Positions 14,828-32,934 of a DNA stretch of 64,000 nucleotides are shown one piece after another. Both the position numbers and the translations under genes were made by a program. Numbering within the stretch: the stretch's first letter is position 1; every line of letters starts with the position of its first letter. The notes beneath the pieces are model-generated. The model ran no database searches and was not told the DNA's origin. It worked only from the letters and a program-made list of their open reading frames with translations. This stretch comes from Elusimicrobiota bacterium. GTDB lineage: Bacteria; Elusimicrobiota; Elusimicrobia; Elusimicrobiales; UBA9959. Location of the stretch: NCBI GenBank assembly GCA_019135865.1, contig JAGVVD010000044.1:1-64000 (forward strand). The letters run 5' to 3'.

Positions 14828-15571
14828 TTAGGCCAACCGGGCGGCGGCTTCCGGGGGCATCGAATAAGCCCGGGCCAGGAGTTCCGGGGCCAGCGCCCCC
14901 CCGGCGGGGCCGTGGAACAGCGCCCGTCCGCCCGAGAGGACGAGGGCGGAGGAGGAATAGGCCGCGGCCAGGCGCAGGTCGTGCGAGACCACGATGGCCG
15001 AGAGGCCGCCTTCGCGCAGCGCCGCGAGCGTCTCGAAGAAGGCCGAGCGGTACTTCAGGTCGAGATGGGAGGTGGGCTCGTCGAGCAGCAGCAGCGGCGC
15101 GCCGCCGGCCAGCGCCTGGGCGAGGAAGGCGAGCTGCCTCTCGCCGCTGGATATCGAATTGATCCCGCGGCCGGCCAGAGCGGCTATGCCGCAGGCGTCC
15201 AGCGCGCGCAGGGCGGCCTCCCTGTCGTCCGGGCGATAGTCCTGCCACCAGCGCAGCAGCGGGGAACGCCCCATCAGCGCTATGTCCAGGGCCGTAAAAT
15301 CGAAGGGGACATAGGGTTCGCTGGGCACATAGGCGGCGAGGGACGCCTGCGCACGCGGCGCCAGGCCGTCCAGGCGGCGGCCGCCCGCCTTTATCGAACC
15401 CGCCCCCGGCCGCAGGGCCCCGCAGGCCAGGCGCAGGAGGGTGGATTTGCCCGAACCGTTCGGCCCGAAGACCGAGAGCAGCTCTCCCCGCCCGACGGAG
15501 AAGCTCAGGCCGTCGATGGCGGGCTTGCCGTTGTAGGAGAAGGAAACCCCCTCGAATCCCAGCAGGCTCAT
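14828..15571 (-). CDS. btuD: ABC transporter ATP-binding protein, BtuD/FecE type
   Basis: This 247-residue ATPase powers cobalamin (or siderophore-like) import. Walker A FGPNGSGKST is at about residues 33-42, the signature motif SSGERQ at about 137-142, Walker B LLLLDEPTSHLDL at about 157-169, and the switch histidine in VVSHD at about 192-196. An in-frame extension upstream of 15571 overlaps the permease gene and encodes low-complexity sequence, so the ATG at 15571, which overlaps the permease stop, is the start. Last gene of the riboswitch-controlled operon btuF-btuC-btuD. Cobalamin as substrate rests on the riboswitch. Confidence 0.88.
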   Translation of the reverse strand: MSLLGFEGVSFSYNGKPAIDGLSFSVGRGELLSVFGPNGSGKSTLLRLACGALRPGAGSIKAGGRRLDGLAPRAQASLAAYVPSEPYVPFDFTALDIALMGRSPLLRWWQDYRPDDREAALRALDACGIAALAGRGINSISSGERQLAFLAQALAGGAPLLLLDEPTSHLDLKYRSAFFETLAALREGGLSAIVVSHDLRLAAAYSSSALVLSGGRALFHGPAGGALAPELLARAYSMPPEAAARLA

Positions 15572-16506
15572 CGCCGGTCCTCCCCCGGCGACCGGCGGAG
15601 CAGGAAAAGGAAGAACGGGGCCCCGGCCAGCGCCGTTATCACGCCGGCGGGAAGTTCCGCCGGCGCCGCCGCCGTCCGGGCGAGGGCGTCGGCCAGCATC
15701 AGGAACCCGGCGCCGCATACCGCCGAATAGAAGGCCAGCCCGGCGTGGCGCGGGCCGAAAAGGCGCCGCGCCGCGTGCGGCACGATGAGTCCGACGAAAC
15801 CCACCGCCCCGGCCACCGCCACGGCCGCCGCGGTCAGCAGCGCCGCCAGGGAGAACAGGACGAGCTTCATGCGCTCGACGGGCACGCCCAGCCGCGTGGC
15901 CCCTTCCTCGCCGGCCGAAAGTATGTCGAGCTGCCGCCCGAGCAGCGCCGCGGCGGCGGAACCGGCCAGGGTCACGGCGGCCAGGGCCGCGAGCGCCGCC
16001 GGCTCGAAGGCCCTCACCGTGCCTAGCAGGAAGGAGATCAGCGGCAGGCCGCGGCTGCGGTCCAGCGAGACCAGCAGCATGACCAGCGCGGCCAGGAAAG
16101 AGCTGACCGCCACGCCGGCCAGCAGCATGGCCACGCCCGAGGTGCGGCCCTTTATCCGCGCCAGGCGATAGGCCGCCGCGGTGGCGCCCAGCCCTCCTCC
16201 TCCGACGAGCAGGTAAAAAAGCGGCGAGAGAGGCCCGAGCCCCAGCCAGGCCGCGCCCGCGGCCCCCGCCATCGCGCCGGAAGAAGTGCCGATGATGTAG
16301 GGATCGGCCAGCGGGTTCTTCAGAACGCCCTGAAGTATGGCCCCGGCCACGCTCAGCGCCGCGCCGACCAGCGCGGCCGCCAGCACGCGCGGCAGCCTTA
16401 TATTGAGGATTATGTCCGGGTCGGCCCCGGCGGGGCCGGATACCAGCGCCAGGGCGGCGCAGGCGGCCAGTGCCAGCAGGGCCGCCGCGGCCTTACCTGA
16501 ACTCAT
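15568..16506 (-). CDS. btuC: ABC transporter permease, BtuC/FecCD type
   Basis: This 312-residue, very hydrophobic protein has about nine to ten predicted spans. FecCD-family landmarks are RLPRVLAAALVGAALSVAGAILQ (about residues 37-59, split here as RLPRVLAAALVGA plus ALSVAGAILQ), then NPLADPYIIGTSSGA and GAVGFVGLIVPHAARRL. The latter is the coupling region for the ATPase. It overlaps btuF by 14 bp upstream and btuD by 4 bp downstream. Together the three make a B12 importer of the inner membrane. An outer-membrane BtuB is not in the window. Confidence 0.9.
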   Translation of the reverse strand: MSSGKAAAALLALAACAALALVSGPAGADPDIILNIRLPRVLAAALVGAALSVAGAILQGVLKNPLADPYIIGTSSGAMAGAAGAAWLGLGPLSPLFYLLVGGGGLGATAAAYRLARIKGRTSGVAMLLAGVAVSSFLAALVMLLVSLDRSRGLPLISFLLGTVRAFEPAALAALAAVTLAGSAAAALLGRQLDILSAGEEGATRLGVPVERMKLVLFSLAALLTAAAVAVAGAVGFVGLIVPHAARRLFGPRHAGLAFYSAVCGAGFLMLADALARTAAAPAELPAGVITALAGAPFFLFLLRRSPGEDRR

Positions 16507-17299
16507 CCAGCGCCTCCCTCAGCGCTTTCACCGCCGACGGCGAGGAAGGAGTGAGCCGCGCGAAAAGATCGCGGTCCAGGCCGCAGAGCACGGCGCCCGA
16601 GCGGACCGCCCGGAGCCTCCCGGCCATGGGCCGGGCCTTTATCTCAGCGGCGTCGCCGCCGGGACAGACGATCACGGCGGGATCGGCTTCGACCACGGTC
16701 TCCCAGGAGGCCTGGAAATACCCGGCCTTCTCCCCGGCGAAGATATTGTCGGCCCCGGCCAGCTCCGCCAGCGAAGAGAGGAAGGAAGCGCCGCCGGCCG
16801 ACCAGCCGCCGGCGTCCACCTCTATATACGCCGTCAGCCGCCGCTTGCCCTTATAGGCGGCCCCGGAAAAATCTTTTTTCAGACGGGCGTTGAGTTTGGC
16901 GCCCTCTTTCGCCAGGTCCAGTTCGTAAGCTATCATCCTGACCGTGCGGTAGAGATCTGAGGCGCGCCGCTCTTCCGGCAGGCGCACCACCTTCAGCCCC
17001 AATGCCGACAGTCTTTCCGAGGCCGCGGAGTTCTTCCAGTCGCCCTCGAAAACGATATCGGGCCTGAGCGCGTAGATGCGCTCTATGTCGGGAGCGAAAT
17101 AATCGCCGACCCTGGGCAGCGCGGCCGCCGCGGCCGGCCTGTTGCAGAAATTGGAGACGCCCACCAGCCTCTCTCCCGCCCCCAGGGCGAATATCGTCTC
17201 CGTATAGGACGGCAGCAGCGAGACCACGCGCTCCGTGGTCTCCCCCGCCGCCGGCAAAGGGGACACAATACCTATTAAAAAAGCGCAGATTATCCTCAT
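16493..17299 (-). CDS. btuF: Periplasmic substrate-binding protein, BtuF type
   Basis: This 268-residue secreted protein carries a BtuF-like fold: RVVSLLPSYTETIFALGAGERLVGV near the N-terminus (about residues 24-48; LLPSYTETIFALG is the core), then PDIVFEGDW. It should deliver cobalamin to BtuCD. A start at 17335 is also open but lies inside the palindromic repeat; the ATG at 17299 gives a proper signal peptide (RIICAFLIGIVSPLPAAGE). The hydrophobic core LIGIVSPL of that signal peptide is encoded by a half-copy of the palindromic repeat (17259-17276). There is no strong Shine-Dalgarno sequence before 17299. Confidence 0.87.
   Translation of the reverse strand: MRIICAFLIGIVSPLPAAGETTERVVSLLPSYTETIFALGAGERLVGVSNFCNRPAAAAALPRVGDYFAPDIERIYALRPDIVFEGDWKNSAASERLSALGLKVVRLPEERRASDLYRTVRMIAYELDLAKEGAKLNARLKKDFSGAAYKGKRRLTAYIEVDAGGWSAGGASFLSSLAELAGADNIFAGEKAGYFQASWETVVEADPAVIVCPGGDAAEIKARPMAGRLRAVRSGAVLCGLDRDLFARLTPSSPSAVKALREALDEFR
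17259..17276. repeat. Half-copy of the 44-bp palindrome inside btuF
   Basis: GGGGACACAATACCTATT is identical to 18 bp of one arm of the palindrome. It lies within the signal-peptide codons of btuF, 51 bp from the complete copy at 17328-17371. Confidence 0.85.
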
Positions 17300-17327
17300 T
17301 TTATACTTACCCGATAGAGATTTTCCG

Positions 17328-17371
17328 GGGGACATAATACCTATTTCAACCGAAATAGGTATTGTGTCCCC
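17328..17371. repeat. 44-bp REP-like palindrome, copy 1
   Basis: Left arm GGGGACATAATACCTATTTC (one mismatch to the other copies), spacer AACC, right arm GAAATAGGTATTGTGTCCCC. It is inserted between the riboswitch terminator and btuF, so it is part of the btuF leader RNA. Confidence 0.9.
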
Positions 17372-17381
17372 GAATTAAGAC

Positions 17382-17411
17382 AAAAAAACCCTTTCTCCGG
17401 GAGAGAAAGGG
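17382..17411 (-). terminator. Intrinsic terminator of the cobalamin riboswitch
   Basis: On the minus strand, stem CCCTTTCTC / GAGAAAGGG with a 5-nt loop is followed by TTTTTTT. It begins at the last bases of the B12-box region, the usual position for a transcription-terminating expression platform. Confidence 0.85.
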
Positions 17412-17530
17412 CGTATCGGACTCCCCTCGGAGACCCCTAGGCGGGGGTTCGCAGTAGACCGGGCTGAGCCTTGCGGCATCACCGTTGCGGGGCAGCCGGG
17501 GATTCGCACCCCGTTCCTTCTGCGTGTACT
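17410..17530 (-). ncRNA. Cobalamin riboswitch
   Basis: Read on the minus strand, the region has the adenosylcobalamin aptamer hallmarks in order. GGTGCGAATCCCCGGCTGCC is followed by CCGCAACGGTGA (17510-17475 together), then a variable hairpin region, then AGTCCGATACGCC (17422-17410), the 3' conserved box. An intrinsic terminator follows at once, then btuFCD. Ligand binding should favour the terminator and switch off the importer. The 5' boundary is approximate and must overlap or abut the fadL stop at 17548. Confidence 0.9.
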
Positions 17531-17547
17531 ATGATATCAAATCGGCG

Positions 17548-18792
17548 TCAGAACCGGTACTTTCCCTCCCCCATGACGTACCAGCCCCGGACGGAATAGT
17601 CCACGCCCCCGGAAGTCCGGCGCCCGCCGCCGGCGAGGGCGGCGAGGGTGGCGTCCAGGGTCTTCCCTTTGCGGGTGACGGCCCCGGAGAAGCGGTGCAT
17701 GGGAACGTCGACGGCGGTGGAGAAGTCCACGCTGTCCTTGTCGATGGCGAAAGTGTCGAAGGCGTAACCGGCCATGGCCTCGTAACGGTCGTTCAGACGC
17801 TTCAGGGCGCCCAGCCTGAACTTGACGGAATTCTCCCACCGGTAGGAATTGGTCCTGTCGGCCAGCAGGGCCGAGGGCGTCGAATAGGTCAGCGCGCTGG
17901 AGAAACCCTTCCACCAGGTCTGGGCGCAGTCGAAGGTCAGCGTCAGCGAATCCGAGGCCCGCCAGAGTACGCCCAGGGCGGTGGTGGCCGGGTGCTTCAC
18001 CGGGTACTCGAAGTCGCTCCTGGCGGAGGGAACACCGTCGATAAAGACCTCCTCCTCGCCCTTGAGCCTTATCGTCGCCCCGCTGCGGGCGACCAGGCCC
18101 ACGGCCCAGTCGCCGTTGACGGCGTAGCGCAAGCCTCCGACGGCCTCCAGGCCGTAGCCGGAAGCGTCGGACTTGTTGATCTGGGTCGCTCCGGTCAGCA
18201 GCCCCATCCCCGAGCCCCAGAGTATCTTGGAATCCGACCCCAGGTCGCCGTAAAGCGCGTTCACGCCGACTCCGGCCGAAAGGCGCTCCGTAAACCGGCG
18301 GGCATAAGAGATATTGCCCACGGCCGCGAGTACGGAACTTTCGTAATCCAACGACTCGGCCACGGGATCGCCGGGTGCCGTATCGCTGAACTTGGACCCC
18401 TGCATCAGCGGCGTATATATACCGGTCCCGATAGCGCTGTCGTCGGTGAGCGGTATGACGGCGCCGAACGAGCCGAAGAAGAAGCCGGAGGAAACGCGCG
18501 TCTTGTCGAAAGGATGCGCCACGCCCCCTCCCGTAAGAGGGATATTAAAAGAGTTCCCGTCCTTGGTGTACATCCTGCCGCCGCGGGCCTCCACGCCCAG
18601 GTGCCGTTCGCCCGCCGAGGCCAGGCCCGCCGGGTTCCAGTACACGGCCGTCCAGTCCGTCGCGGCGGCCGTAACGGCGCCTCCCCGCGCCACCGCGCGG
18701 GCGCCGACGCCGTCGAACTCGTAGCCGGAGGCCCGGACTTGCCCCGGCAGCGAGGCGGCCAGCGCCGCGGCGAATATAAGAGCGTTCCTCAT
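17548..18792 (-). CDS. FadL/OmpP1 (toluene_X) outer-membrane protein
   Basis: This 414-residue protein has a signal peptide (ALIFAAALAASLPGQVRAS). The mature N-terminus has the FadL signature: YEFDGVGARAVARGGAVTAA, then DWTAVYWNPAGLA (about residues 46-58). The remainder is an alternating beta-barrel pattern ending in the aromatic GKYRF, typical of an outer-membrane terminal strand. Members take up long-chain fatty acids or aromatic hydrocarbons. It is the last gene of the coupled operon, with a start overlapping the kinase stop by 4 bp. Its substrate is unknown, but cyclase-like membrane genes upstream suggest a lipophilic molecule. Confidence 0.88.
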   Translation of the reverse strand: MRNALIFAAALAASLPGQVRASGYEFDGVGARAVARGGAVTAAATDWTAVYWNPAGLASAGERHLGVEARGGRMYTKDGNSFNIPLTGGGVAHPFDKTRVSSGFFFGSFGAVIPLTDDSAIGTGIYTPLMQGSKFSDTAPGDPVAESLDYESSVLAAVGNISYARRFTERLSAGVGVNALYGDLGSDSKILWGSGMGLLTGATQINKSDASGYGLEAVGGLRYAVNGDWAVGLVARSGATIRLKGEEEVFIDGVPSARSDFEYPVKHPATTALGVLWRASDSLTLTFDCAQTWWKGFSSALTYSTPSALLADRTNSYRWENSVKFRLGALKRLNDRYEAMAGYAFDTFAIDKDSVDFSTAVDVPMHRFSGAVTRKGKTLDATLAALAGGGRRTSGGVDYSVRGWYVMGEGKYRF

Positions 18793-20102
18793 GCGGCCTC
18801 CGCGACGGCCGCCGGCAGCGTGACCGAGAACTCGGCGCCGCCGCCGGGCCGGTTCGCCGCGGCCGCGGAGCCCCCGTTCTTCCTGGCCAGTTCGCAGACT
18901 ATCAGCAGGCCCACGCCGGTGCCGTCCTTTTTGGTGGTGAACCTGTCCATGAAAAGCCTCGGCAGACGCTGCTGCGGGATGCCGGCCCCCGAATCCGCCA
19001 CGACCACGGTAAGGAGGGCGCCGGAGTGCGCGCGGGCGCTCACCCGGACTTCGCGCCGCGGCAGGCCGGCGGAAGCTTCGAAGCCGTTCTTTATCAGGTT
19101 GAAGAAGATCTGCCTCAGTTCCTTCAGGGAACCGCGCATGGAAAGCCCTTCCATGGAAGCTTCGTCCACTAGCAGGCTGCCGCCGAGAGCGGACGGGTGG
19201 AATCTGACCAGCGCGGCCAGTTCCCTGAAGAAAGGGCTCAGCGGCACTTCGACGGGGCGGTTCTCGTCCGCGCGGCCGTAGCCGCTTATCCCCTTGATCA
19301 GGGCGGCCATATGGAGCAGCGAGGAACGGGACGCCTCGAGACCCTCCCGGGCTTCCCCGGCGAGGCCCTTATCCATCAGGATCAGGTCCAGGCTGCCGAG
19401 AGCGCTGGCTATCGGGGAGTTGAGATCGTGCGCCACGCGGTGGGCCAGCACGCCTATCTGGGAGCAGGAATCCAGATCGGCCAGCTGCTTGAGAAGCCCT
19501 TCCTTGGCGTTGAACTCCCTCTGGACTTCGTGGTGGAGCTTCGTCAGTATTATGCCCGTCAGCGTCGAGCAGATCACCATGAAGGCCATATAGGAGGACA
19601 GCACCCAGAAAGTGGTCAGCGGGCTGGCGTAGATCCTGGCGGCCAGATCGTTAGTGACGGGGAGCAGCCCGCCGGCCTCCGCCAGCACGACGGAGAAGTA
19701 GGAGCCCACGGCGCAGACGGTGGAGTACTGCGCCTTCCCGCCGTAGACGAGCTCCGATATCAGGAACACCAGGTAGAACACCGCGAAAGGGGAGGTTATA
19801 CCGCCGCTCCAGTGTATTATGGGGGCCAGGCCCAGCACGCCCGCGCAGGTCATGACCGAGATGAAGCGCCTGAACAGGGCCGGGGTCACGCGCTCGACGA
19901 CAAGGGCTATGGCGGCGTAGGAGAAGGAATACGCCCCCATCACGTAAAGGAGGCGCTTGTCGAAAGGAAAATCGGGGATCGTCAGACAGAAGACGACTAT
20001 GAGCAGGTTCAGGCCCGCCGAGAACCAGGCCTGCATGCGCACCAGCCCCGCCGAGCCGTGGCTCAGCCTGGCGGTCAGCGAAGGTTCAGCGGCCCGGGTC
20101 AC
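18789..20102 (-). CDS. Membrane sensor histidine kinase
   Basis: This 437-residue protein has about six N-terminal transmembrane helices (residues 20-190) and no periplasmic sensor loop of note. A kinase core follows: H-box RVAHDLNSPIASALG at about 224-238, N-box FFNLIKNGFEAS, G1 ADSGAGIPQ, G2 GTGVGLLIV. HDLNSP replaces the common HELRTP, placing it near the NtrB/RegB/PrrB-like kinases. No response regulator is adjacent. It overlaps the upstream membrane gene by 17 bp and fadL by 4 bp. A sensor embedded in the membrane, cotranscribed with cyclase-like proteins, could respond to a membrane or lipid signal; that is inference. Confidence 0.88.
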   Translation of the reverse strand: MTRAAEPSLTARLSHGSAGLVRMQAWFSAGLNLLIVVFCLTIPDFPFDKRLLYVMGAYSFSYAAIALVVERVTPALFRRFISVMTCAGVLGLAPIIHWSGGITSPFAVFYLVFLISELVYGGKAQYSTVCAVGSYFSVVLAEAGGLLPVTNDLAARIYASPLTTFWVLSSYMAFMVICSTLTGIILTKLHHEVQREFNAKEGLLKQLADLDSCSQIGVLAHRVAHDLNSPIASALGSLDLILMDKGLAGEAREGLEASRSSLLHMAALIKGISGYGRADENRPVEVPLSPFFRELAALVRFHPSALGGSLLVDEASMEGLSMRGSLKELRQIFFNLIKNGFEASAGLPRREVRVSARAHSGALLTVVVADSGAGIPQQRLPRLFMDRFTTKKDGTGVGLLIVCELARKNGGSAAAANRPGGGAEFSVTLPAAVAEAA

Positions 20103-20622
20103 GCTCGAACTCCCCCTCCCAGGTCCTGATGAAAGTCGGCACTATCAGCATAAGAAGCGAGTAACCGGCCATTATCTCCCAGGGCATGCCGAAGAACGGG
20201 ATCAGGCCCCAGTCCCACTGGAGCAGGTCCTGCCGGTAAGACCACACCCCCAGCTTCGCTCCGGCCGTCTCCATCGGGAGAGCGACGAGGGCCGCCGCGG
20301 CGACGTCGAAAAGAAAGATCCTCTTATCCCCCCTGGCGATTCTATCTTTTTTAAGCAGCCTGGTATAGCCTTTTTCGGCTAAAAAAACTATCAGCGTCAG
20401 CATCACCATCCAGCCGGTCACCACGGCCACCGGCGCGTCCTTGTAGAAAGTAACGCGGAAATTATAGTCCCAGAGCGGCTCCGTGGCCATCTCCCACATG
20501 ACGCCGACTATGGCCGCGGCCGTCAGCTCGCCGGTCACGTCGCGCCGCGCGTAACGGCGGAACAGCCACCAGACTACGGGGACCTGCAGGAAGCCCCAGG
20601 CCTCCAGGAGCGCCAGTTTCAC
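20086..20622 (-). CDS. Integral membrane protein, paralogue 2, cyclase-like
   Basis: This 178-residue protein has about five to six spans. It is a clear paralogue of the next gene upstream: both share RR-x-ARR-x-VTGE near residue 25, EMAT/EFAT-x-PLW-x-Y-x-FR near 50, YKD-x-P-x-AVV near 65, DKR-x-FLFDV near 100 and LGVW-x-YR-x-DLL-x-WDWG-x-x-PFF-x-MPWE near 125-150. The last block (LGVW...PWE) resembles the GVWGF...PLEE block of lycopene cyclase domains. No named family is certain. Tandem duplication and 4-bp and 17-bp overlaps with neighbours make it a genuine operon member. Confidence 0.7.
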   Translation of the reverse strand: MKLALLEAWGFLQVPVVWWLFRRYARRDVTGELTAAAIVGVMWEMATEPLWDYNFRVTFYKDAPVAVVTGWMVMLTLIVFLAEKGYTRLLKKDRIARGDKRIFLFDVAAAALVALPMETAGAKLGVWSYRQDLLQWDWGLIPFFGMPWEIMAGYSLLMLIVPTFIRTWEGEFERDPGR

Positions 20623-21152
20623 GGCCGCTCCCCCTCGAAGACGCCCTCCCAGAGCCGCACGAAGCTGGGCCCGACCAGCATCAGCAGGCAGTAGCCGAAC
20701 AGGGCCTCCCAGGGCATATGGAAGAACGGCACGCTGCCCCAGTCCCAGGCCAGCAGGTCGTAGCGGTAGTCCCAGACCCCCAGCTTGAGCGAGAGCGTCT
20801 CCACGGGGAAAGCTATCAGCGCGGCCGCTATGACATCGAAGAGGAAAACGCGCTTATCGCGGATATCGACGCGCTCCTTCTTAAGGAAGAACCGGTAGAG
20901 CGCGCCCGAAAAATGTACCACCAGCGTAAACAGGACGCCCCAGCCGAGCACCACCGCCAGAGGCGTGTCCTTGTAGATATTGAGACGGAAGTGGTAGTTC
21001 CAGAGCGGCTGGGTGGCGAACTCGTTGAAGACGCCTATGATCGTCCCGGCGATCATCTCGCCCGTCACGTTCCGGCGCGCGAAACGCCTGAAGGCCCACC
21101 AGACCAGCGGTATCTGGACGAAGAACCAGATCTCCAGCAGCAGCAGTTTCAT
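20619..21152 (-). CDS. Integral membrane protein, paralogue 1, cyclase-like
   Basis: This 177-residue protein is the tandem paralogue of the gene at 20086-20622, with about five to six spans and the same conserved blocks (RRFARRNVTGE, NEFATQPLWNYHFR, YKDTPLAVV, DKRVFLFDV, FFHMPWEALFGY). Acidic residues are buried in hydrophobic stretches (VTGEMIAG, GVFNEFAT, PVETLSLK). That pattern suits an isomerase- or cyclase-type active site rather than a simple anchor. Starts and stops overlap both neighbours by 4 bp. The relationship to carotenoid cyclases is suggested by motif layout only. Confidence 0.7.
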   Translation of the reverse strand: MKLLLLEIWFFVQIPLVWWAFRRFARRNVTGEMIAGTIIGVFNEFATQPLWNYHFRLNIYKDTPLAVVLGWGVLFTLVVHFSGALYRFFLKKERVDIRDKRVFLFDVIAAALIAFPVETLSLKLGVWDYRYDLLAWDWGSVPFFHMPWEALFGYCLLMLVGPSFVRLWEGVFEGERP

Positions 21153-21526
21153 CCTCCCCCCTTCCGGCCGTCCAGCCGGTTCTTGAGCGCGTGCATCAGC
21201 ACCACCACGAAGAGCGGCGGGAACCAGTAATAGAGCAGCGGCTCCTCCAGCGGGATGCCGAATATGGTCGGCCCGACTATCCTGTCCGGGTTCCAGATCC
21301 AGTGCCCGCGGCTGACCGAGAAGAACTCGGCCGCGAACATCAGCGCCTCGAAGGTAAGTATCATGGCCGCCGCGGCCGCCCAGTCGACGGAATGCCGGGC
21401 GGCCCTGTAGAGCGGTATTATTATGAAAAAGAACGGCGCGGCCAGCAGGACGGTGAACGGGAAACGCCTGGTCGTGGTGAACTTGGGGCCTTCGGGGCCG
21501 GAGAGATGCTTCTTGTCCTCAGGCAT
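21149..21526 (-). CDS. Lycopene cyclase-domain membrane protein (CrtYd-like)
   Basis: This 125-residue protein has about three spans. It carries the lycopene cyclase domain hallmarks RGHWIWNPDRIVGP followed by GIPLEEPLLYYWFPP (about residues 72-100), including the P-x-E-E motif needed in CrtYc/CrtYd and CarR/CarRP-type cyclases. It starts 8 bp before the stop of the companion gene at 21519-21842; two such half-size proteins together resemble heterodimeric CrtYc-CrtYd. No phytoene synthase or desaturase is in the window, so the substrate may be another isoprenoid or lipid. Domain call fairly firm, reaction uncertain. Confidence 0.72.
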   Translation of the reverse strand: MPEDKKHLSGPEGPKFTTTRRFPFTVLLAAPFFFIIIPLYRAARHSVDWAAAAAMILTFEALMFAAEFFSVSRGHWIWNPDRIVGPTIFGIPLEEPLLYYWFPPLFVVVLMHALKNRLDGRKGGG

Positions 21527-21842
21527 CCTTCCTCCCCAGGAGGCGGCGGTAGCCCAGATAGACCGAGAGGCAGAAAGGCGTGGCGCCGAACCAGTAGACG
21601 TACTCCTCCACCGGAGCGCCCAGCACCCACCAGCCCACCAGCGGGTCCACGGCCTCGGAGAAACCCCAGACCTCGAAATACAGGAAGAGCTGTTCCATGA
21701 CGATCGAGACCGCGCCCATGATGAGCGCGGCCAGCCAGAACGGCCGGCGATAGGCCGGCGCGACGCGCGGGAAAAGAAAGAGAACGAAAAGCAGGGACGG
21801 GACCCAGAACAGGCCCGTGTAGGTCAGCAGGTATACCGGAAT
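21519..21842 (-). CDS. Lycopene cyclase-domain membrane protein (CrtYc-like), non-canonical start
   Basis: About 107 residues with three spans. The sequence runs PVYLLTYTGLFWVPSLLFVL, then EVWGFSEAVDPLVGWWVLGAPVEEYVYW, which holds the GVWGF-like and P-V-E-E motifs of lycopene cyclase domains. The frame is closed by a stop at 21858-21860 and has no ATG, GTG or TTG before the first helix. The first ATG (21719) would delete the first helix and half of the second. The most plausible start is ATT at 21842-21840, 4-5 nt after GGGAGGGG. Coordinates therefore rest on an unusual start, or the true start codon has been lost. Confidence 0.6.
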   Translation of the reverse strand: MPVYLLTYTGLFWVPSLLFVLFLFPRVAPAYRRPFWLAALIMGAVSIVMEQLFLYFEVWGFSEAVDPLVGWWVLGAPVEEYVYWFGATPFCLSVYLGYRRLLGRKDA

Positions 21843-21857
21843 AACCCCTCCCGATGC

Positions 21858-22535
21858 TCAGAACAATTTTCTGGTCAGGAACCCCAGTTTCTTCGCGAAA
21901 GCGGTGCGCAGCAGCCTCTCCGGATCGCCCATGGCGGCGTCCAGTTTCGGGTCGTAGGGCACGCCCTTCGGGCTCATGTTCTCGACCAGGCCGGCCACCG
22001 GCACCGTCATCGCCTTGTACACCGCCAGCGAACGGCGCAGCACGTCGCGCGCAACCGGCGACGGAGTGGTGACGGCCAGGATACGGGCCCTGGGGAAGAA
22101 CCGGAGCGCGTCCAGCGCGGCGTCGCCTATACCGGGCGGCATATCGATGATAAGGTGATCGAGTTCCCCCCACAGCGTCACGGCCAGCATCTCGATAACC
22201 GCGTCGGTGACGTCGGCGCCGCGCAGCGGCACGCCCTGCCCTTTGGAGAAGAAGGATATCGACATGAACTTCACGCCGTGCACGAAAGGAGGCACCAGGC
22301 CCATGTCCTCGCGCGGGAAAGCCTTGCCGGAGCCGAGGATGAAATGGCAGGAGGCGCCGGTCAGGTCCAGGTCCAGCAGGCCGGTCTTGTGCCCCTTCTC
22401 GGTCAGCAGCAGCGCCAGCGTGGAAGCGGTGACGCTCTTGCCGATGCCGCCCTTCCAGCCGGTCACGGCGGTTATCTTCCTGACTTTCTTCAGACGGTCG
22501 GCGATGACCGAAGGACGCGGGTCCAGCGCGGTCAT
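21858..22535 (-). CDS. MinD/Mrp-family ATPase, candidate ATPase-type HypB
   Basis: This 225-residue protein is a deviant-Walker ATPase: KGGIGKSVTAST (about residues 28-39) followed by switch I DLDLTGAS and the Walker B region LIIDMPPGIGD. The last is the Mrp/NBP35-type DMPPG motif. It overlaps the hypA stop (ATGA). In Thermococcus kodakarensis the partner of HypA in nickel insertion is an Mrp/MinD-type ATPase rather than the usual GTPase HypB, and this gene pair copies that arrangement. It could alternatively be an Fe-S carrier of the Mrp type, but no C-terminal CxxC is present. The start at 22535 follows from the overlap. Confidence 0.78.
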   Translation of the reverse strand: MTALDPRPSVIADRLKKVRKITAVTGWKGGIGKSVTASTLALLLTEKGHKTGLLDLDLTGASCHFILGSGKAFPREDMGLVPPFVHGVKFMSISFFSKGQGVPLRGADVTDAVIEMLAVTLWGELDHLIIDMPPGIGDAALDALRFFPRARILAVTTPSPVARDVLRRSLAVYKAMTVPVAGLVENMSPKGVPYDPKLDAAMGDPERLLRTAFAKKLGFLTRKLF

Positions 22536-22936
22536 TTCGACCCCTTGATGTGCTTTATGTAGACGCCGCGGCCGGCGGTCATCTCGAAATCGGGGCTCTT
22601 GCACGAAGGGCATTTGATGAAGGAGTGGGCCATCTCCGGCACGAAATGGATGAACTCGGCCTCGTCGCTCTCCTTGCGGAAGCGTTTGAGGTCGAACTCC
22701 GCCGAGCAGGCCCGGCAGCGGAAAGCGGCCGGCTCGTCGATGACGCGGAACCTGGCGGAAGCCATGAGCGGGTGCTTTTTGGCCAGTTCCTTCATGGCGA
22801 AAGGGAAGATCTCCTTGTCTATCGCCTGCAGTTCGCCGAAGACGACGGCGACCTCGCTGACGCGCTTCAGCTTCAGTTCCGCGGCGTGCTGCGCCGCGGC
22901 TTTTATCACGGATTCGGCCAATGCCCATTCGTGCAT
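22532..22936 (-). CDS. hypA: HypA-type hydrogenase nickel-insertion protein
   Basis: This 134-residue protein begins MHEWALAESVI; Met1-His2-Glu3 is the nickel-binding N-terminus of HypA. A zinc-binding domain follows with two CxxC pairs: FRCRAC near residue 75 and KCPSC near residue 110. The spacer between them is longer than usual. The start at 22936 is chosen because HypA must begin MHE and a TATCAT box ends 6 nt upstream; the ATG five codons earlier would mask His2. It heads the eight-gene operon. Expected to serve the [NiFe] hydrogenase at 30.8-34.8 kb. No hypCDEF is in the window. Confidence 0.85.
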   Translation of the reverse strand: MHEWALAESVIKAAAQHAAELKLKRVSEVAVVFGELQAIDKEIFPFAMKELAKKHPLMASARFRVIDEPAAFRCRACSAEFDLKRFRKESDEAEFIHFVPEMAHSFIKCPSCKSPDFEMTAGRGVYIKHIKGSK

Positions 22937-22942
22937 GGGGAA

Positions 22943-22948
22943 ATGATA
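22943..22948 (-). promoter_or_regulatory. Leaderless-type -10 box of the hypA operon
   Basis: TATCAT on the minus strand ends 6 nt (TTCCCC) before the ATG at 22936. The T-run of the preceding terminator lies directly upstream, so any -35 would fall within that hairpin. Confidence 0.5.
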
Positions 22949-22987
22949 CAAAAAAAGCCGGAGCCCCGGCCCGGGGCCCCGGCTTTT
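22949..22987. terminator. Intrinsic terminator after the RcpC-like gene
   Basis: The GC-rich stem AGCCGG-A-GCCCCGG / CCGGGG-C-CCGGCT is followed on the minus strand by TTTTTTT. It closes the sigma-factor operon and insulates the hypA promoter. Confidence 0.82.
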
Positions 22988-23003
22988 CCGCCGCCGTCCT
23001 CCG

Positions 23004-24035
23004 CTACTTGAACAGCTTCTTGAACGACGCTATCTCCATCGGGTGGAGCTCCACGTCGCCCTTGGCCCTCCGGACCAGCGCGAGGCTGCCGCCCTGTACC
23101 AGGCTGAGCGCCGCATACTGCGCCTCGTTGGGATTGACCAGCAGCTGCGCGAGGCCGACGCCGTCGGGGGTCTCGGGCTTGTCCACCTTCAGCACCGACA
23201 CGTTCTGCAGTATCGTGGCCGTCACCTTCTCCTTGCGGTCGTCGGCCATCAGCGCGTCGAAGGTCACCAGCATGTCCACGCGGTCGCCGGGCGAAAGGAA
23301 CATCACCTGGGAACCGCTCAGGGGCAGACTGACGCCGCGGTAGCCGGGCAGCAGCCTGGTCTCGGCCTCGTAGCGGGCGGCCGTCTTCACTTTGGCGGCC
23401 TCCCCGGTCAGCGCGGCGAAGGAACCCCGCGACGCGGCGAGTGCGCCGCCGATGCCCTTGTAAGCCCCATCCACGTCGTTCTCCGACATGGCGGCGGTGG
23501 CCTCGTCCAGGCCTTTCACGGCCTCGCCGAACCGGGTCAAGACCCCGCTGGCGCGGCCCGCGAGCGTCTTCTCCATGCCGGACCTGTACAGCCGGTCCAC
23601 CGCCATTATCAGCCGCAGCCGGATATCCCCGTACTCCTTCTCCAGTTCCAGCGGGGAGACCGCCTTTTCCGACGCGCCCGGCACGGTCCCCCGGGTCTTA
23701 TCGGCCAGCTCGTAGAGTATGGAGAAAGCGTCCTGCCAGAGACGGGCCCCGTCGAGCTCGCCCTCCTCCGGGTCTTTCCAGGCCTTCTTCTCCAGCAGCG
23801 CGGCCCTCTCCTTCTCCAGCCAGCCCGGGAGTTCCAGTTTCCCGCCGCGGCCCGCGCAGCGGGTAACGCGCGACCGGACGCCGGGGTCCAGGTCGGGAGC
23901 CAGCCAGTAATAGGCCGTCTGCATTTCCTCCGCCGCGCAGGAGACTTCTTTCGCCTCCGGGGCCGAAGGGAAGGCCGCGGCCGCCGGAGCGGCGCAGACG
24001 GCGCAGGGGATCAGCAGCATAAGCAAGGTCTTCAT
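23004..24035 (-). CDS. Secreted protein with C-terminal RcpC/CpaB-like domain
   Basis: This 343-residue protein has a signal peptide (TLLMLLIPCAVCAAPAAAA). A helical, charged region covers about residues 25-220. The C-terminal domain (about 235-343) has GDRVDMLVTFD, then TATILQNVSVL and LLVNPNEAQYAALSL. That block is the RcpC/CpaB region of Flp-pilus assembly proteins, here lacking the SAF domain and membrane anchor. Its end, VELHPMEIASFKKL, nearly repeats that of the smaller neighbour. Four conserved-looking cysteines lie in the N-terminal third. No pilus genes are nearby. It is cotranscribed with an ECF sigma factor and is probably a structural or sensory envelope protein. Confidence 0.75.
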   Translation of the reverse strand: MKTLLMLLIPCAVCAAPAAAAFPSAPEAKEVSCAAEEMQTAYYWLAPDLDPGVRSRVTRCAGRGGKLELPGWLEKERAALLEKKAWKDPEEGELDGARLWQDAFSILYELADKTRGTVPGASEKAVSPLELEKEYGDIRLRLIMAVDRLYRSGMEKTLAGRASGVLTRFGEAVKGLDEATAAMSENDVDGAYKGIGGALAASRGSFAALTGEAAKVKTAARYEAETRLLPGYRGVSLPLSGSQVMFLSPGDRVDMLVTFDALMADDRKEKVTATILQNVSVLKVDKPETPDGVGLAQLLVNPNEAQYAALSLVQGGSLALVRRAKGDVELHPMEIASFKKLFK

Positions 24036-24047
24036 ATCTCCTCCGTC

Positions 24048-24491
24048 CTACTTTATCAGCCTGCGGAAGCTGGCCATTTCCATCGGGTGCAGCTCGAAGT
24101 CGCCGGGAGCGCGCACCGAGATATGCACCTTCTGCCCCTGGGCCACGCTCAGCGCCGCGTACTGGGCTTCGTTCGGGTTCAGGAGCAGTTCGATGACGCC
24201 GGCGCCTTCGCGCTTCGCCGGTTTCATCACGTTGAGCACCACCACGTTCTGCAGTATCGTGGCGGTGACCTTCTCCTTCCTGTCGTCCTTCATCAGCGCG
24301 TCGAAAGTGACCAGCACGTCCACCCGGTCTCCTTTCTTCACGTAGAGCAGCTGGTCCCAGCCGACGGTTATCGCGGCGCCGCGGTACCCCTGCGCCACGC
24401 TCCCCTGCCCGCTCTCCCCGTCGGCCGCGCCCAGCGGCCGCGGGGCCAGCATGACCGCCGCCAGGGCGGCCGCCATCATCAACCTCTTCAT
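24048..24491 (-). CDS. Secreted stand-alone RcpC/CpaB-like protein
   Basis: This 147-residue protein consists of a signal peptide (KRLMMAAALAAVMLAPRPLGAA) and one RcpC/CpaB-like domain: KKGDRVDVLVTFDALMKDDR, then TATILQNVVVLNV and LLLNPNEAQYAALSVAQG. The C-terminal half is about 60 % identical to that of the larger neighbour, ending ELHPMEMASFRRL. The ATG at 24491 follows AGGAGG by 6 nt, so the longer frame from 24515 is rejected. Only 12 bp separate it from the next gene. In known pilus systems this domain multimerises in the periplasm; what it does without the rest is unknown. Confidence 0.75.
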   Translation of the reverse strand: MKRLMMAAALAAVMLAPRPLGAADGESGQGSVAQGYRGAAITVGWDQLLYVKKGDRVDVLVTFDALMKDDRKEKVTATILQNVVVLNVMKPAKREGAGVIELLLNPNEAQYAALSVAQGQKVHISVRAPGDFELHPMEMASFRRLIK

Positions 24492-24511
24492 AAGGCCTCC
24501 TTTTACGTCCG

Positions 24512-25183
24512 TCATATGGTCCTCTTGTCGAAAAACTCCTCGTACGAGGTCGCCCGCCGCTCGATGATCAGCACGGCGGACTCCGTCTCCAGCACCAGGT
24601 CGGTCCCCCCGTCCGCCTTCACCTCTCTGGCCGCGGCGGTGACTATGGGGGAACCGGCGCCGGCGCTGCCGATGGGGAAAGCTGCCAGCGGTTCGCCGCG
24701 CGGCGCGGACATCGGTATGGACGCGAACAGGGCCCCGTCTCCGGGAACGGGGGCGGCGGGGACGGGGCGCGGCGCGGCGGGAAAGACCTGCGGCGGCGCG
24801 GGCAGCGCCCGCGGAAGCGCCGCGACGGGCGCGGCGGGCGCCGGCAGCGAAGCCTCCGGCGCGGGCGGCGAAGGAACGCGCCCCGGCCGCCGCGCGACCT
24901 GCGTGACCAGCAGGAGCAGGCAGGCCGCGGCGAAGACCATCTTGAAAGCGGCGCCCGTGAACGCCTCTACGATCAGGGCCAGGACGCCGGTCCCCTCTTT
25001 TCCTCCGGCCAGCCTGGCGCGCAGTTCCTCCCGGATGGCGGACTCGCCGCTGAAATCCGCGGCGGCCAGCGCGGCGGCCGTCCGGATCAGGGCTTCGTCA
25101 TGGCTGGGGAAAGGCGGACGCCCGTCCCGCAGCAGGACGTCGAGCTCACCGTTGAAAAGTTCGGCCGCCTCGTTCTCGCTCAT
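24512..25183 (-). CDS. Single-span membrane protein, candidate anti-sigma factor
   Basis: This 223-residue protein has a cytoplasmic N-terminal helical region (residues 1-75), one transmembrane helix at about 76-94 (FKMVFAAACLLLLVTQVA), and a long periplasmic Pro/Ala-rich linker (about 100-150). A small C-terminal domain with VLETESAVLIIERR follows. It overlaps the ECF sigma gene by 4 bp. That position and topology fit an anti-sigma factor, although no ZAS motif (HxxxCxxC) is present, so the fold would be a different class. The C-terminal LIIERRATSYEEFF segment may be the signal-receiving part. Assignment is from context. Confidence 0.6.
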   Translation of the reverse strand: MSENEAAELFNGELDVLLRDGRPPFPSHDEALIRTAAALAAADFSGESAIREELRARLAGGKEGTGVLALIVEAFTGAAFKMVFAAACLLLLVTQVARRPGRVPSPPAPEASLPAPAAPVAALPRALPAPPQVFPAAPRPVPAAPVPGDGALFASIPMSAPRGEPLAAFPIGSAGAGSPIVTAAAREVKADGGTDLVLETESAVLIIERRATSYEEFFDKRTI

Positions 25184-25680
25184 ATCGCCTTGCTCCCGCC
25201 CAGCAGCTCCTGCATCTTCCTCACCGCGCGGTAGATTATTATCCCTATATTGCTCTCGCCCAGCCCCGTCATCGCCGCTATCTCCCTGTTGCTCATGCCG
25301 GAGGAGAATTTAAGCGCCATGATGTCGCGCGATCTCTCGTCCAGCGCGGCCGCCGCCGCCAGCACCCGTTCCCGCTCCTCCCGGCCCTCCAGTATGTCCT
25401 CGGCCCTGGGGTCGGAGCCCGGCCGCTCGAAGGCCCCGTCCAGCGGGACTTCCGCCCGGCGGCCGCGCGCCCTGCCCCAGTCCGCGACCGCGTTGCGCGC
25501 TATGCCGAAGAGCCAGGTCTGCTCGTTGCCCTTCGCCGGGTCGTAGGTACCGGCCTTGCCCAGCGCCGCCTCGAAGACCCTGGCCGTTATATCGTCCGCC
25601 GCGTCGGCCAGGCGCACGCGGTAGCGCACGTAATTGTAGACCTTGTCGAAATAGCGGTCGTAGATGTCGGCGAAATCCAT
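25180..25680 (-). CDS. ECF-family RNA polymerase sigma factor
   Basis: This 166-residue sigma-70 family protein has region 2 (DIYDRYFDKVYNYVRYRV...ADDITARVFEAAL, with TWLFGIARNAVADW for -10 recognition, residues 5-70). It has region 4 with a helix-turn-helix (LKFSSGMSNREIAAMTGLG, about 123-141). Its length and two-domain build are those of ECF factors. It heads an operon with a membrane protein and two secreted RcpC-like proteins, and probably drives that operon. The start at 25680 has AGAGG 8 nt upstream. Confidence 0.88.
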   Translation of the reverse strand: MDFADIYDRYFDKVYNYVRYRVRLADAADDITARVFEAALGKAGTYDPAKGNEQTWLFGIARNAVADWGRARGRRAEVPLDGAFERPGSDPRAEDILEGREERERVLAAAAALDERSRDIMALKFSSGMSNREIAAMTGLGESNIGIIIYRAVRKMQELLGGSKAI

Positions 25681-30318: not shown

Positions 30319-30801
30319 TCAAAGGGAATTGAAATAAGCGGCCAGCTCGTCTGCCGCCGCCTTTACCGCCGGCGAGAGCGCTTCGCGGTGGTCCAGCGAG
30401 GCGGCCTGTACGCCTATGACGGCCAGCTCCGCGCCGGTATCCTCTTTGACGACCGAGAAGGTGACCGAAAGCGGGAAATTATGGGTCGAGACCAGGGTAT
30501 GCTTATTGATGTCCTCGAGAGCGATGACGCGCAGTTCGCCGGGTTCCCCCCCGAAATCGGCGGCGTCCACCAGGATTATCTTGGCGGGTTTCCAGTCTAT
30601 GGCGGTCTGCGCCACGCTCTCGGGTACGGTGCCGGCGTCTATCAGCCGCAGGCCGTCGCGGCGGAACTTCACCAGCGAGGAAAGGTAAGGGCCGACGCCG
30701 TCGTCGGCCCTCAGCTCGCTGCCGAGCGTCATCAGCAGCGTCCGGCCCCCTTGAGCGGGGGCCAGAGCCGCTTTCACCTCGTCACTCCACGAATTTGACA
30801 T
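30319..30801 (-). CDS. Hydrogenase maturation endopeptidase
   Basis: This 160-residue protein is a HycI/HyaD/HoxW-type nickel-dependent protease. It cleaves the C-terminal tail of the hydrogenase large subunit after nickel insertion. Nickel ligands are visible as E/D in GSELRADDGVGP (about residues 27-38), D in LIDAGTVPE (about 53-61) and H in VSTHNFPLS (about 103-111). It overlaps the large-subunit gene by 20 bp, so substrate and protease are coproduced. The tail predicted to be removed is YLDVKFVE. Confidence 0.9.
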   Translation of the reverse strand: MSNSWSDEVKAALAPAQGGRTLLMTLGSELRADDGVGPYLSSLVKFRRDGLRLIDAGTVPESVAQTAIDWKPAKIILVDAADFGGEPGELRVIALEDINKHTLVSTHNFPLSVTFSVVKEDTGAELAVIGVQAASLDHREALSPAVKAAADELAAYFNSL

Positions 30802-32116
30802 CGAGGTAGTGCGCCGAACACGAGATGCACGGGTCGTAGGCCCGCACCAGCATCTCCAGCCTGAGCCGTATATCGTCCTGCTTCAGGTGCAGGATCTCCG
30901 GCAGGAACTTGGAGAAGTCGTGCTCGATGTTGTTGACGTTCTGGTTGGTCGGGATGATGCAGTTGGCCTTCTTTATCGTCCCGTCGGCCTCGGTAACATA
31001 GTTGTGGTGCAGTATGCCGCGCGGCACCTCCACCGACCCCACGCCGTCCCCGGCGCGCACCGGCACGGCGCCCTTCTCGTTCACGCCGACGGTGATCTCC
31101 TGGCTGTAGTCAACGCCGTTCTTCTTAAGGTCCTTCAGGATGCCCAGCGCGTGGTGGTAGCAGTGGATGATCTCCACGACCTGCGCCATCGTGTTCATGA
31201 ACGGGTTGTGGCAGACGGGCTTGAGGCCTATCTCTTTCGCGTAGGCCTTGGCCTTGGGGTGCAGCTTGTCGTAGTTCAGGTTGAAACGGGCCAGCGCGCC
31301 CACGAAGAGGCTGTCGCGGTTCCACTTGGTGAACTTGGCCGAGCTGCGCTGGTCCACGAACTCGTTGGTGGACTTGCGGTACTCCTTGCGGCTGACGCGC
31401 GAGCCGTCGGTGCTGCCGATATCGCCGGAGAGCAGCGGGTACTCGGCGTCGTCCGATACCAGCGCGACGTACTCGGTCTCGCGGGTGAAGTCCGGCAGCT
31501 TGAGGGTCTTGGCCAGTTTGAGCAGGGGCTCGAGCTCGGCGGTCATCCCCTCCATTATCTTTATCTGCGCGTCCAGGTCCTTCGGACGCGGCAGCTTGGT
31601 CCAGCCGCCCACGATGGCCGTGATCGGGTGGATGTGGCGGCCGACCAGGATGTCGCAGCAGTCGTTGACGGCCTTCTTGAGCCGCAGGATCTGGCGCACG
31701 ACGGTGTTGTGCGTCTTGACGAGCGGGATGAAGGACGGCACGCCCAGCGCGTCGGGCGCCACCAGCAGGAAGGCGTGCAGCACGTGGCTGTCGAGGAACT
31801 CGTAGTCCAGCAGAAGCTTGCGCAGCTTTATCGTCTGCTCGGTCGGGACCACGCCCAGGGCGTCCTCGGCCGCGGCCACCGAGGCCAGGGTGTGGCCGCA
31901 GGAACAGATGCCGCAGATGCGGCTGGTGATGTGCTGGGCTTCGAAGATGCTGCGCCCGCGCAGCATACCCTCGAAGAGGCGGGGCGTCTCCACGACGTGG
32001 AACTCGCACTTCTCGATCCTGCCGTTCTTCACGTTGGCCACTATGTTGCCGTGGCCCTCGACGCGGGTGACGTAGTCCACCTTTATATCTATGTTCTTTT
32101 CGGTCGTTTTCGCCAT
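30782..32116 (-). CDS. hydA: [NiFe] hydrogenase large (alpha) subunit, group 3b type
   Basis: This 444-residue catalytic subunit has both Cys pairs that bind the Ni-Fe-(CN)2CO centre: RICGICSCGH (about residues 65-74) and DPCISCSAH at the C-terminus, followed by an 8-residue cleavable tail. It is cytoplasmic, with no Tat signal on its partner. The operon order beta-gamma-delta-alpha matches the soluble NADP-linked sulfhydrogenases of Pyrococcus. It can oxidise H2 with NADP+ or evolve H2. The ATG at 32116 follows GAGG 6 nt upstream and begins at AKTTEKNIDIKVDYVTRVEGHG; the frame continues upstream into the delta gene, which is ignored. Confidence 0.93.
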   Translation of the reverse strand: MAKTTEKNIDIKVDYVTRVEGHGNIVANVKNGRIEKCEFHVVETPRLFEGMLRGRSIFEAQHITSRICGICSCGHTLASVAAAEDALGVVPTEQTIKLRKLLLDYEFLDSHVLHAFLLVAPDALGVPSFIPLVKTHNTVVRQILRLKKAVNDCCDILVGRHIHPITAIVGGWTKLPRPKDLDAQIKIMEGMTAELEPLLKLAKTLKLPDFTRETEYVALVSDDAEYPLLSGDIGSTDGSRVSRKEYRKSTNEFVDQRSSAKFTKWNRDSLFVGALARFNLNYDKLHPKAKAYAKEIGLKPVCHNPFMNTMAQVVEIIHCYHHALGILKDLKKNGVDYSQEITVGVNEKGAVPVRAGDGVGSVEVPRGILHHNYVTEADGTIKKANCIIPTNQNVNNIEHDFSKFLPEILHLKQDDIRLRLEMLVRAYDPCISCSAHYLDVKFVE

Positions 32117-32124
32117 ATTGAGCC

Positions 32125-32934
32125 TCATTTGCCCTTGCCGGGCTTCTGGTCGTTCTCTTTGCACTTGTTGTACATGTCGAACTTGTTCTTGATAAGTTCG
32201 GGCTTCAGGTTGTACTTGGTGATGACGTCCTGCGCGGCCTTGGAGGGGTTGGAGACCTCGCCGCGGCAGCCGTAGCAGATATTGCCGTTGTTGACGCACC
32301 AGCTGTTGCAGCCGGCCTTGGTCCAGGGACCCAGGCAGGCGACGCCGCGCTCGTACATGCAGACGTTCTCGTTGAGCTTGCACTCGGAGCAGACCGGGTT
32401 GTCCGGCACGGTGTAGGGCAGGCCCCGCAGCGCGTGCTTGACCACTTCCAGTATCTCCGGCGCGTAGACGGGGCAGCCGTTGATGAAGTAGTCGACCTTG
32501 ACCACCTGGTGGACGGCCTTCGTAGGCGTGCTGTCGAACCACTTGTAGTCCGGGCCGTAGACGTGCTCGCGTATCTCGTCGAGCTTGAAGGAGTTCTTCA
32601 TTCCGTTGACGCCGCCGGTGCAGGCGCAGGCGCCGTAGGCGATGAGGACCTTGGCCCGGGCGCGGATCTTCTTGAGGCGCTCCTCGGCGTGGTGGTCGCC
32701 GATCGAGCCCTCTATGAAGACCACGTCGTAGTCCTTGTCCCATTTCTCGCTGATGGCCTCGCGGAACTCGACCACGTCGATGGCGCCGAGGATGTCCAGC
32801 AGGGTCTCGCCGAGGTTGGTGATCTGCAGCTGGCAGCCCTCGCACGAGGCGAAGTCGAAGAACGCGACCTTGGGCTTGGCGGCGGCCTTGGGGGCCTTCG
32901 CCGGGGCTTTAGCGGGTTTATTGGCTGTTTTCAT
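32125..32934 (-). CDS. hydD: [NiFe] hydrogenase small (delta) subunit, group 3b type
   Basis: This 269-residue electron-transfer subunit carries Fe-S clusters. The proximal cluster region is FASCEGCQLQ (about residues 28-37) with GACACTGG and NGCPVYAPEI. A C-terminal ferredoxin-like cysteine set follows: CSECKLNENVC, GVACLGPWTKAGC and CYGCRGE. No Tat signal is present, so it is cytoplasmic. Unusually, about 20 N-terminal residues are a Lys/Ala/Pro repeat (KPAKAPAKAPKAAAKPK) before the first strand. It starts 20 nt after the gamma gene. Confidence 0.93.
   Translation of the reverse strand: MKTANKPAKAPAKAPKAAAKPKVAFFDFASCEGCQLQITNLGETLLDILGAIDVVEFREAISEKWDKDYDVVFIEGSIGDHHAEERLKKIRARAKVLIAYGACACTGGVNGMKNSFKLDEIREHVYGPDYKWFDSTPTKAVHQVVKVDYFINGCPVYAPEILEVVKHALRGLPYTVPDNPVCSECKLNENVCMYERGVACLGPWTKAGCNSWCVNNGNICYGCRGEVSNPSKAAQDVITKYNLKPELIKNKFDMYNKCKENDQKPGKGK

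What the first reader, a model, noticed from the sequence alone, without database searches (positions are those of the whole stretch)
17548..22948. Eight-gene coupled operon: HypA, MinD-type ATPase, four cyclase-like membrane proteins, histidine kinase, FadL
From hypA to fadL, successive genes overlap by 4-17 bp (one 15-bp gap), so they are one transcription-translation unit. It joins nickel-chaperone-type proteins, two lycopene-cyclase-domain half-proteins (P-x-E-E motifs), two tandem paralogues with a similar GVW...PWE block, a six-span histidine kinase without an adjacent regulator, and an outer-membrane hydrophobic-substrate channel. I know of no described system with this composition. A hypothesis is that a lipophilic isoprenoid-like compound is modified in the membrane, sensed by the kinase and moved by FadL.
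Basis: partly seen in the sequence, partly recalled or inferred. Interest (0 to 1): 0.7.

Follow-up and report, generated by a model that had tools for sequence, protein, structure and literature searches.

The report
Carotenoid-cyclase-like membrane module without carotenoid pathway
A set of genes found so far only in Elusimicrobiota bacteria encodes several small membrane proteins related to carotenoid-tailoring enzymes, linked to a membrane sensor kinase and a channel for oily molecules, yet nearly all genomes that carry it lack the genes needed to make carotenoids, so it probably modifies or senses some other, unidentified lipid.

Summary
The eight genes are real and tightly coupled. Two things are joined here. 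hypA plus an ATP-type hypB (best relatives are the Thermococcus HypA/HypB pair) belong to a neighbouring [NiFe]-hydrogenase block. The remaining six genes form a separate module: LcyA-LcyB-Par(-Par)-kinase-FadL. In Elusimicrobiota the LcyB protein and the Par family co-occur almost perfectly (18 genomes with both, 1 LcyB only, 0 with clear Par only, of 295), across several families, and the order is largely kept. Relatives add, inside the module, a two-domain lycopene-cyclase-type protein, a CruF-type protein (PF04240, in this phylum found only here) and a response regulator. De novo carotenoid synthesis is unlikely as the general role: 0 of 17 other carriers has a CrtI-type desaturase over cut-off, and two carriers have no squalene/phytoene synthase match. 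This genome's own crtI pair is unlinked. Par is a new family; its confident model resembles the lipid-binding Insig fold, and so, weakly, does the two-domain lycopene-cyclase relative. Most likely it is an isoprenoid-type lipid-modifying complex coupled to a RegB-like sensor; the ligand is unknown. A purely sensory, Insig-like role is the main rival. I found no description of it.

The parts
22532..22936 (-). HypA, nickel metallochaperone (neighbouring hydrogenase-maturation block, not the core module)
   Evidence: PRK03824 148.5 bits over cut-off 125; PDB 3a43 HypA E=1.9e-30; next to the module in same-family relatives only
21858..22535 (-). ATP-type HypB (Mrp/MinD-like), partner of HypA
   Evidence: PDB 3vx3 and 5aun-5auq (Thermococcus HypB and HypA-HypB complexes) E=4.2e-64; PF10609 E=7.7e-47
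21519..21842 (-). LcyA, lycopene-cyclase-domain half-protein, probable ATT start
   Evidence: TIGR03462 E=1.3e-7, below cut-off; invariant E50, E79, E80 in 10 aligned members; start from relatives
21149..21526 (-). LcyB, second lycopene-cyclase-domain half-protein
   Evidence: PF18916 E=9e-6 at 26.6 vs cut-off 27; homologous to LcyA, hhalign 94.7%; invariant P-x-E-E
20619..21152 (-). ParA, five-helix membrane protein of a new family
   Evidence: no Pfam family over cut-off; 26 invariant columns in 29 sequences; AlphaFold pLDDT 93.9; best fold match MvINS/Insig
20086..20622 (-). ParB, tandem paralogue of ParA (about 60% identical)
   Evidence: in a separate supported clade of the tree
18789..20102 (-). 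Membrane histidine kinase, H225, sensor motif GGITSPF
   Evidence: PF02518 E=1.1e-20; whole-length but sub-cut-off match to ActS/PrrB/RegB NF033792; GG..SP and H225 in 18 of 18 aligned kinase rows
17548..18792 (-). FadL/TodX-type outer-membrane channel
   Evidence: PF03349 75 bits over cut-off 29.7; directly after the kinase in most carriers
22951..22989 (-). Intrinsic terminator upstream of hypA
   Evidence: 18-bp stem with T tail
17391..17579 (-). Cobalamin riboswitch of the next unit (BtuFCD-like), overlaps fadL 3' end
   Evidence: RF00174 33 bits over gathering 31.5

Best explanation
The core module (LcyA, LcyB, one or two Par, kinase, FadL; in relatives also a two-domain Lcy protein, a CruF-type protein and a response regulator) most likely forms an inner-membrane complex that carries out acid-type chemistry (cyclisation, hydration or isomerisation) on terminal isoprene units of a lipid that is not a home-made carotenoid. 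LcyA and LcyB act as a CrtYc/CrtYd-like pair. The RegB-like kinase reads that lipid or the membrane state and controls expression. FadL passes the hydrophobic compound across the outer membrane. HypA and ATP-type HypB are hydrogenase-maturation neighbours in one family. Shown: gene order, co-occurrence, homology of LcyA/LcyB to lycopene-cyclase domains, invariant acidic residues, absence of crtI over cut-off in the other carriers. Inferred: complex formation, catalysis, ligand, sensing, transport.
For: Par and LcyB occur in the same 18 of 295 genomes, with 1 LcyB-only and no clear Par-only genome (Fisher p=7e-28, not corrected for relatedness), in linked order. PF04240 (CruF) occurs in 6 of 295 genomes, all carriers, at places inside the module. 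A PF18916/TIGR03462 two-domain protein lies between Par and kinase in three other families. P-x-E-E acids are invariant in LcyA and LcyB; Par keeps E43, D61, D98, D105, E117 and E148 invariant in 29 sequences. The kinase family has GG..SP in 18 of 18 rows, close to the quinone-binding GGXXNPF of RegB (PMC8191878), and matches the RegB model along its length.
Against: No ligand or activity is known. Menaquinone is not a universal candidate: UbiA was not found in G226 and G088, and futalosine-pathway genes only in G119, G069 and G205. The kinase motif has S where RegB has N and the RegB score is far below cut-off. The Insig-like fold could mean ligand binding without catalysis. FadL is missing or elsewhere in some carriers (L032, L033, L085). 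One genome (G119) has LcyA-LcyB without Par.
Confidence: 0.45

Rival explanations
1. The Lcy, Par and CruF-like proteins are not enzymes but Insig-like lipid receptors that hand a signal to the kinase; the operon is a lipid- or redox-sensing system, with FadL as importer or target.
For: Par's best PDB match is the mycobacterial Insig homologue MvINS (Foldseek prob 0.99, TM 0.48, E 0.029), and the two-domain lycopene-cyclase relative independently retrieves the Scap/Insig complex and MvINS (TM up to 0.55 of target, prob 0.44-0.51). A kinase is part of nearly every carrier locus and a response regulator of several.
Against: All Foldseek E-values exceed 0.001 and the second model is weak (pLDDT 69). 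Catalytic-type acids are invariant, and CruF and CrtYcd relatives are enzymes.
Confidence: 0.25
2. The module tailors carotenoids or other polyenes taken up from the environment through FadL.
For: Carotenoid-tailoring-type proteins without crtB/crtI, plus a channel for hydrophobic compounds.
Against: No rhodopsin seen (whose control did not ring); FadL not in every carrier locus; source of carotenoids unclear.
Confidence: 0.1
3. The module cyclises carotenoids made by the cell itself, as CrtYc/CrtYd do.
For: This genome has two crtI-family genes flanking an aldehyde dehydrogenase and two SQS_PSY genes.
Against: 0 of 17 other carriers has crtI_fam over cut-off (sub-cut-off matches in G143 and G245); G037 (100% complete) and G088 are not among genomes with SQS_PSY; overlap of the crtI ortholog with the module is one genome of 295, no more than chance. 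The SQS_PSY proteins here resemble squalene-route HpnD rather than CrtB, pointing to C30 acyclic products.
Confidence: 0.06
4. The whole eight-gene unit serves the hydrogenase: lipid or redox sensing by the kinase controls hydrogenase expression, as RegB does in Rhodobacter.
For: In this family the module lies beside hydrogenase, HycI, HypA and HypB genes; RegB-like kinase.
Against: No HypA/HypB beside the module in the loci read from families f3, f6, f12 and f21, nor in those of G211, G215 and G226 of the same family.
Confidence: 0.1

Closest known systems
CrtYc/CrtYd (CrtYcd, CrtYef, LitAB) carotenoid cyclases
   Same: Two adjacent small membrane half-proteins with the CarR/lycopene-cyclase domain and P-x-E-E acids; a fused two-domain form exists in relatives.
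   Different: No crtI-type partner in the other carriers; joined to Par, a kinase and FadL; window copies score below family cut-offs.
CruF / Caroten_synth (PF04240) carotenoid hydratase
   Same: CruF-type protein in seven module loci (L092, L094, L095, L096, L031, L035, L037), directly after FadL.
   Different: Not in the window's genome; far below the CruF equivalog cut-off; no carotenoid pathway.
Insig / MvINS
   Same: Predicted fold of Par and, weakly, of the two-domain lycopene-cyclase relative.
   Different: No sequence match to the Insig family; five helices in Par; bacterial operon with a histidine kinase instead of Scap.
RegB/PrrB/ActS redox kinases
   Same: Whole-length similarity and a GGxxSPF motif resembling the quinone motif GGXXNPF.
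   Different: Score far below cut-off, S for N in the motif, no RegA-type partner seen.
Thermococcus HypA / ATP-type HypB
   Same: Both proteins best match the T. kodakarensis pair solved as a complex; they lie near [NiFe]-hydrogenase genes.
   Different: In a bacterium, and followed by an unrelated membrane module.

Membership tests
CrtYc/CrtYd-type lycopene cyclase | Lycopene-cyclase (CarR) domain over curated cut-off | tested here: inconclusive
   LcyB 26.6 vs 27 bits in PF18916, LcyA 32 vs 39.4 in TIGR03462; a two-domain relative is over both cut-offs
CrtYc/CrtYd-type lycopene cyclase | Two half-proteins (or a fusion) with conserved P-x-E-E acids | tested here: met
   Adjacent pair, invariant acids
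CrtYc/CrtYd-type lycopene cyclase | Occurs with phytoene synthase and desaturase | tested here: not met
   0 of 17 other carriers with crtI_fam over cut-off; two carriers without SQS_PSY match
CrtYc/CrtYd-type lycopene cyclase | Cyclises lycopene | not testable with these tools
   Needs expression in a lycopene-making E. coli laboratory strain
HypA / ATP-type HypB pair | HypA family over cut-off and closest to archaeal HypA | tested here: met
HypA / ATP-type HypB pair | Mrp-like HypB next to hypA and [NiFe]-hydrogenase genes | tested here: met
   E=4.2e-64 to 3vx3/5aun; neighbours
RegB/PrrB/ActS kinase | Model score over cut-off and GGXXNPF motif | tested here: not met
   42.6 vs 350 bits; GGITSPF
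FadL/TodX | Toluene_X domain over cut-off | tested here: met
   75 vs 29.7 bits
Insig | Sequence match to Insig family or structures | tested here: not met
   No Insig family in the Pfam scan; no Insig chain in the profile search of PDB
Insig | Fold similarity | tested here: inconclusive
   Par prob 0.99 but E 0.029, TM 0.48; two-domain Lcy prob 0.44-0.51

The most novel reading that the evidence does not exclude
Lycopene-cyclase-type proteins, the new Par family and eukaryotic Insig share one membrane fold for binding isoprenoid lipids, and Elusimicrobiota use several of them together with a RegB-like kinase as a bacterial isoprenoid-lipid sensing and remodelling system outside carotenoid metabolism.
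Probability: 0.25. Interest if true: 0.85.

Novelty: new variant of a known kind. Interest (0 to 1): 0.58.

Why it matters
Proteins annotated as lycopene cyclase or carotenoid hydratase are usually taken as a sign of carotenoid synthesis. Here they are conserved together, with a new companion family and a sensor kinase, in genomes that mostly seem unable to make carotenoids. That warns against annotation by domain and points to an unknown membrane-lipid chemistry or signal. If the fold link to Insig holds, it would give a bacterial setting for the origin of a eukaryotic sterol-sensor fold.

Tried and rejected
Carotenoid pathway reading: rejected as a general role. HypA/HypB as part of the module: rejected, family-specific neighbours. 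Rhodopsin link: no hit in 18 carriers, but the control rang nowhere, so weak. Menaquinone as a common substrate: UbiA and futalosine genes not in all carriers. PDB sequence searches with Par, LcyB, CruF-like and two-domain Lcy profiles gave nothing meaningful. Profile comparison of Par with LcyA/LcyB gave only weak, same-register matches around E..GVW.Y..P.E, so kinship of Par is not claimed from sequence. Viral structure library: nothing useful. Par hits to MptA and FliR models: composition-type matches, ignored. Paper searches found no description of the module and none linking Insig to lycopene cyclases.
Full report
Observation. The junctions are 4 overlap, 15 gap, 8, 4, 4, 17 and 4 overlap. 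hypA begins at ATG 22936. LcyA has no usual start codon: all relatives read begin M- or V-P-x-Y where this gene reads ATT (21842), preceded by GGAGGGG, so an ATT start or a single-base error is likely. A strong terminator (22951-22989) lies just upstream of hypA. A cobalamin riboswitch (17391-17579) overlaps the end of fadL and precedes a BtuF-like and FecCD/BtuC-like transporter. The unit is therefore bounded at both ends.

Identity of the genes. HypA scores over the cut-off of model PRK03824, and the 'MinD-type' ATPase is closest to the ATP-type HypB of T. kodakarensis, solved as a complex with HypA (archaeal HypB homologues that hydrolyse ATP are mentioned in PMC12134894). In same-family relatives they follow the hydrogenase small and large subunits and the HycI protease (the window's HycI). 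This pair is ordinary hydrogenase maturation. LcyA and LcyB carry lycopene-cyclase domains slightly below curated cut-offs and are homologous to each other. ParA and ParB match no Pfam family over cut-off. FadL is a clear Toluene_X protein. The kinase has HATPase and HisKA domains and aligns along its length to the RegB/PrrB model, far below its cut-off; the GG..SP motif and H225 are kept in all 18 aligned kinase rows (the 18 rows include the window's kinase twice and a few loci with two kinases).

Conservation. A search of 295 Elusimicrobiota genomes found Par in 18, not counting two matches at E about 4e-4 (one of them is a second match in a carrier). LcyB was found in the same 18 plus G119, not counting one match at 7e-4. 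Fisher p is 7e-28, not corrected for relatedness. A pattern scan of the 84,980-species genome-contig collection gave 15 loci; 13 records are named Elusimicrobia, Elusimicrobiales or Elusimicrobiota and two are 'bacterium' MAGs. That scan used one pattern, so relatives elsewhere may have been missed. Gene order in 22 loci: HydD-HydA-HycI-EbfC-HypA-HypB-(kinase)-LcyA-LcyB-Par-(Par)-kinase-FadL-(CruF-small TM)-BtuF-BtuC-BtuD in much of the window's family. In families f3, f6 and f12 it is response regulator-LcyA-LcyB-Par-(Par)-two-domain Lcy-kinase, with FadL after it or divergent upstream. In G037 (f21) it is LcyA-LcyB-Par-Par-kinase. In G088 the genes lie on two contigs. HypA and HypB are not beside the module outside the window's family. 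Some members of that family (G211, G215, G226) also lack them in the sequence read. G119 has LcyA-LcyB alone, near HypA.

Carotenoid test. The window's genome has two crtI-family genes flanking an aldehyde dehydrogenase (contig C46) and two SQS_PSY genes on C31. The better SQS_PSY protein is closest to HpnD and not CrtB, which suggests a C30 acyclic route. This is unlinked. The crtI ortholog occurs in 12 of 295 genomes and overlaps with the module only in this genome, which is what chance gives. None of 17 other carriers has a crtI-family match over cut-off; two have sub-cut-off matches, one of which scans as an amine oxidoreductase. G037, 100% complete, and G088 are not among the 179 genomes with SQS_PSY. 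The only PF04240 proteins in these 295 genomes are in six module carriers, at the CruF positions inside the module. So several carotenoid-tailoring-type families travel together in genomes without the pathway.

Structure. Par (29 sequences) gave a confident five-helix model, pLDDT 93.9. Its best PDB match is MvINS, a bacterial Insig homologue (prob 0.99, E 0.029, TM 0.48). The two-domain lycopene-cyclase relative (3 sequences, pLDDT 69) independently retrieved a chain of the Scap/Insig complex first and MvINS fifth and tenth (prob 0.44-0.51, TM up to 0.55 of the target). Neither reaches E 0.001, so this is a lead. Profile comparison of Par with LcyA and LcyB is weak but in the same register.

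Reading. The most likely role is modification of terminal isoprene units of an unidentified lipid by an LcyA/LcyB/Par membrane complex, read out by a RegB-like kinase and moved by FadL. The main rival is a purely sensory, Insig-like role. Quinones are a tempting ligand because of the RegB motif (PMC8191878), but quinone genes were not found in all carriers. Catalysis, ligand and complex formation are inferred. CrtYcd-type cyclases are described from Actinobacteria, Archaea and Bacteroidetes within carotenoid pathways (PMC2889829); this module differs in partners and in pathway context.

Limits. Genomes are MAGs, so absences are statistical. The phylum sample is related by descent and the Fisher values do not correct for that. 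No protein was tested. What Insig binds (oxysterols, PMC8549280) and that CruF hydrates carotenoids rest on published or established knowledge of those families, not on tests here.

Noticed in passing
window 21842: LcyA appears to start at ATT; all relatives read have ATG or GTG there. Rare start codon or a sequence error.
   Followed up: partly
window 17391-17579 (-): Cobalamin riboswitch overlapping the fadL 3' end, upstream of a BtuFCD-like transporter (15568-17335 and beyond).
   Followed up: yes
L058:8786-13273 (G000:C46:46785-51272): crtI-like, aldehyde dehydrogenase, crtI-like cluster suggesting C30 carotenoid acids; the first crtI's ortholog is in 12 of 295 Elusimicrobiota.
   Followed up: partly
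window 30319-32845 (-) and relatives L031, L036: [NiFe] hydrogenase with an FAD/NAD-binding subunit in relatives (group 3b-like by gene content) and HycI protease upstream of hypA.
   Followed up: partly
window 23004-25680 (-): Two related RcpC/SAF-like secreted proteins (23004-24035, 24048-24515) after what looks like a sigma/anti-sigma pair; the two proteins also lie near HypA in L084, L093 and L095.
   Followed up: no
L084:3253-3952: G119 has LcyA-LcyB alone, between EbfC and HypA, without Par or adjacent kinase.
   Followed up: yes
L031:7983-9245, L034:7990-9261, L036:7988-9262: A second kinase of the same family directly upstream of LcyA in some carriers.
   Followed up: partly
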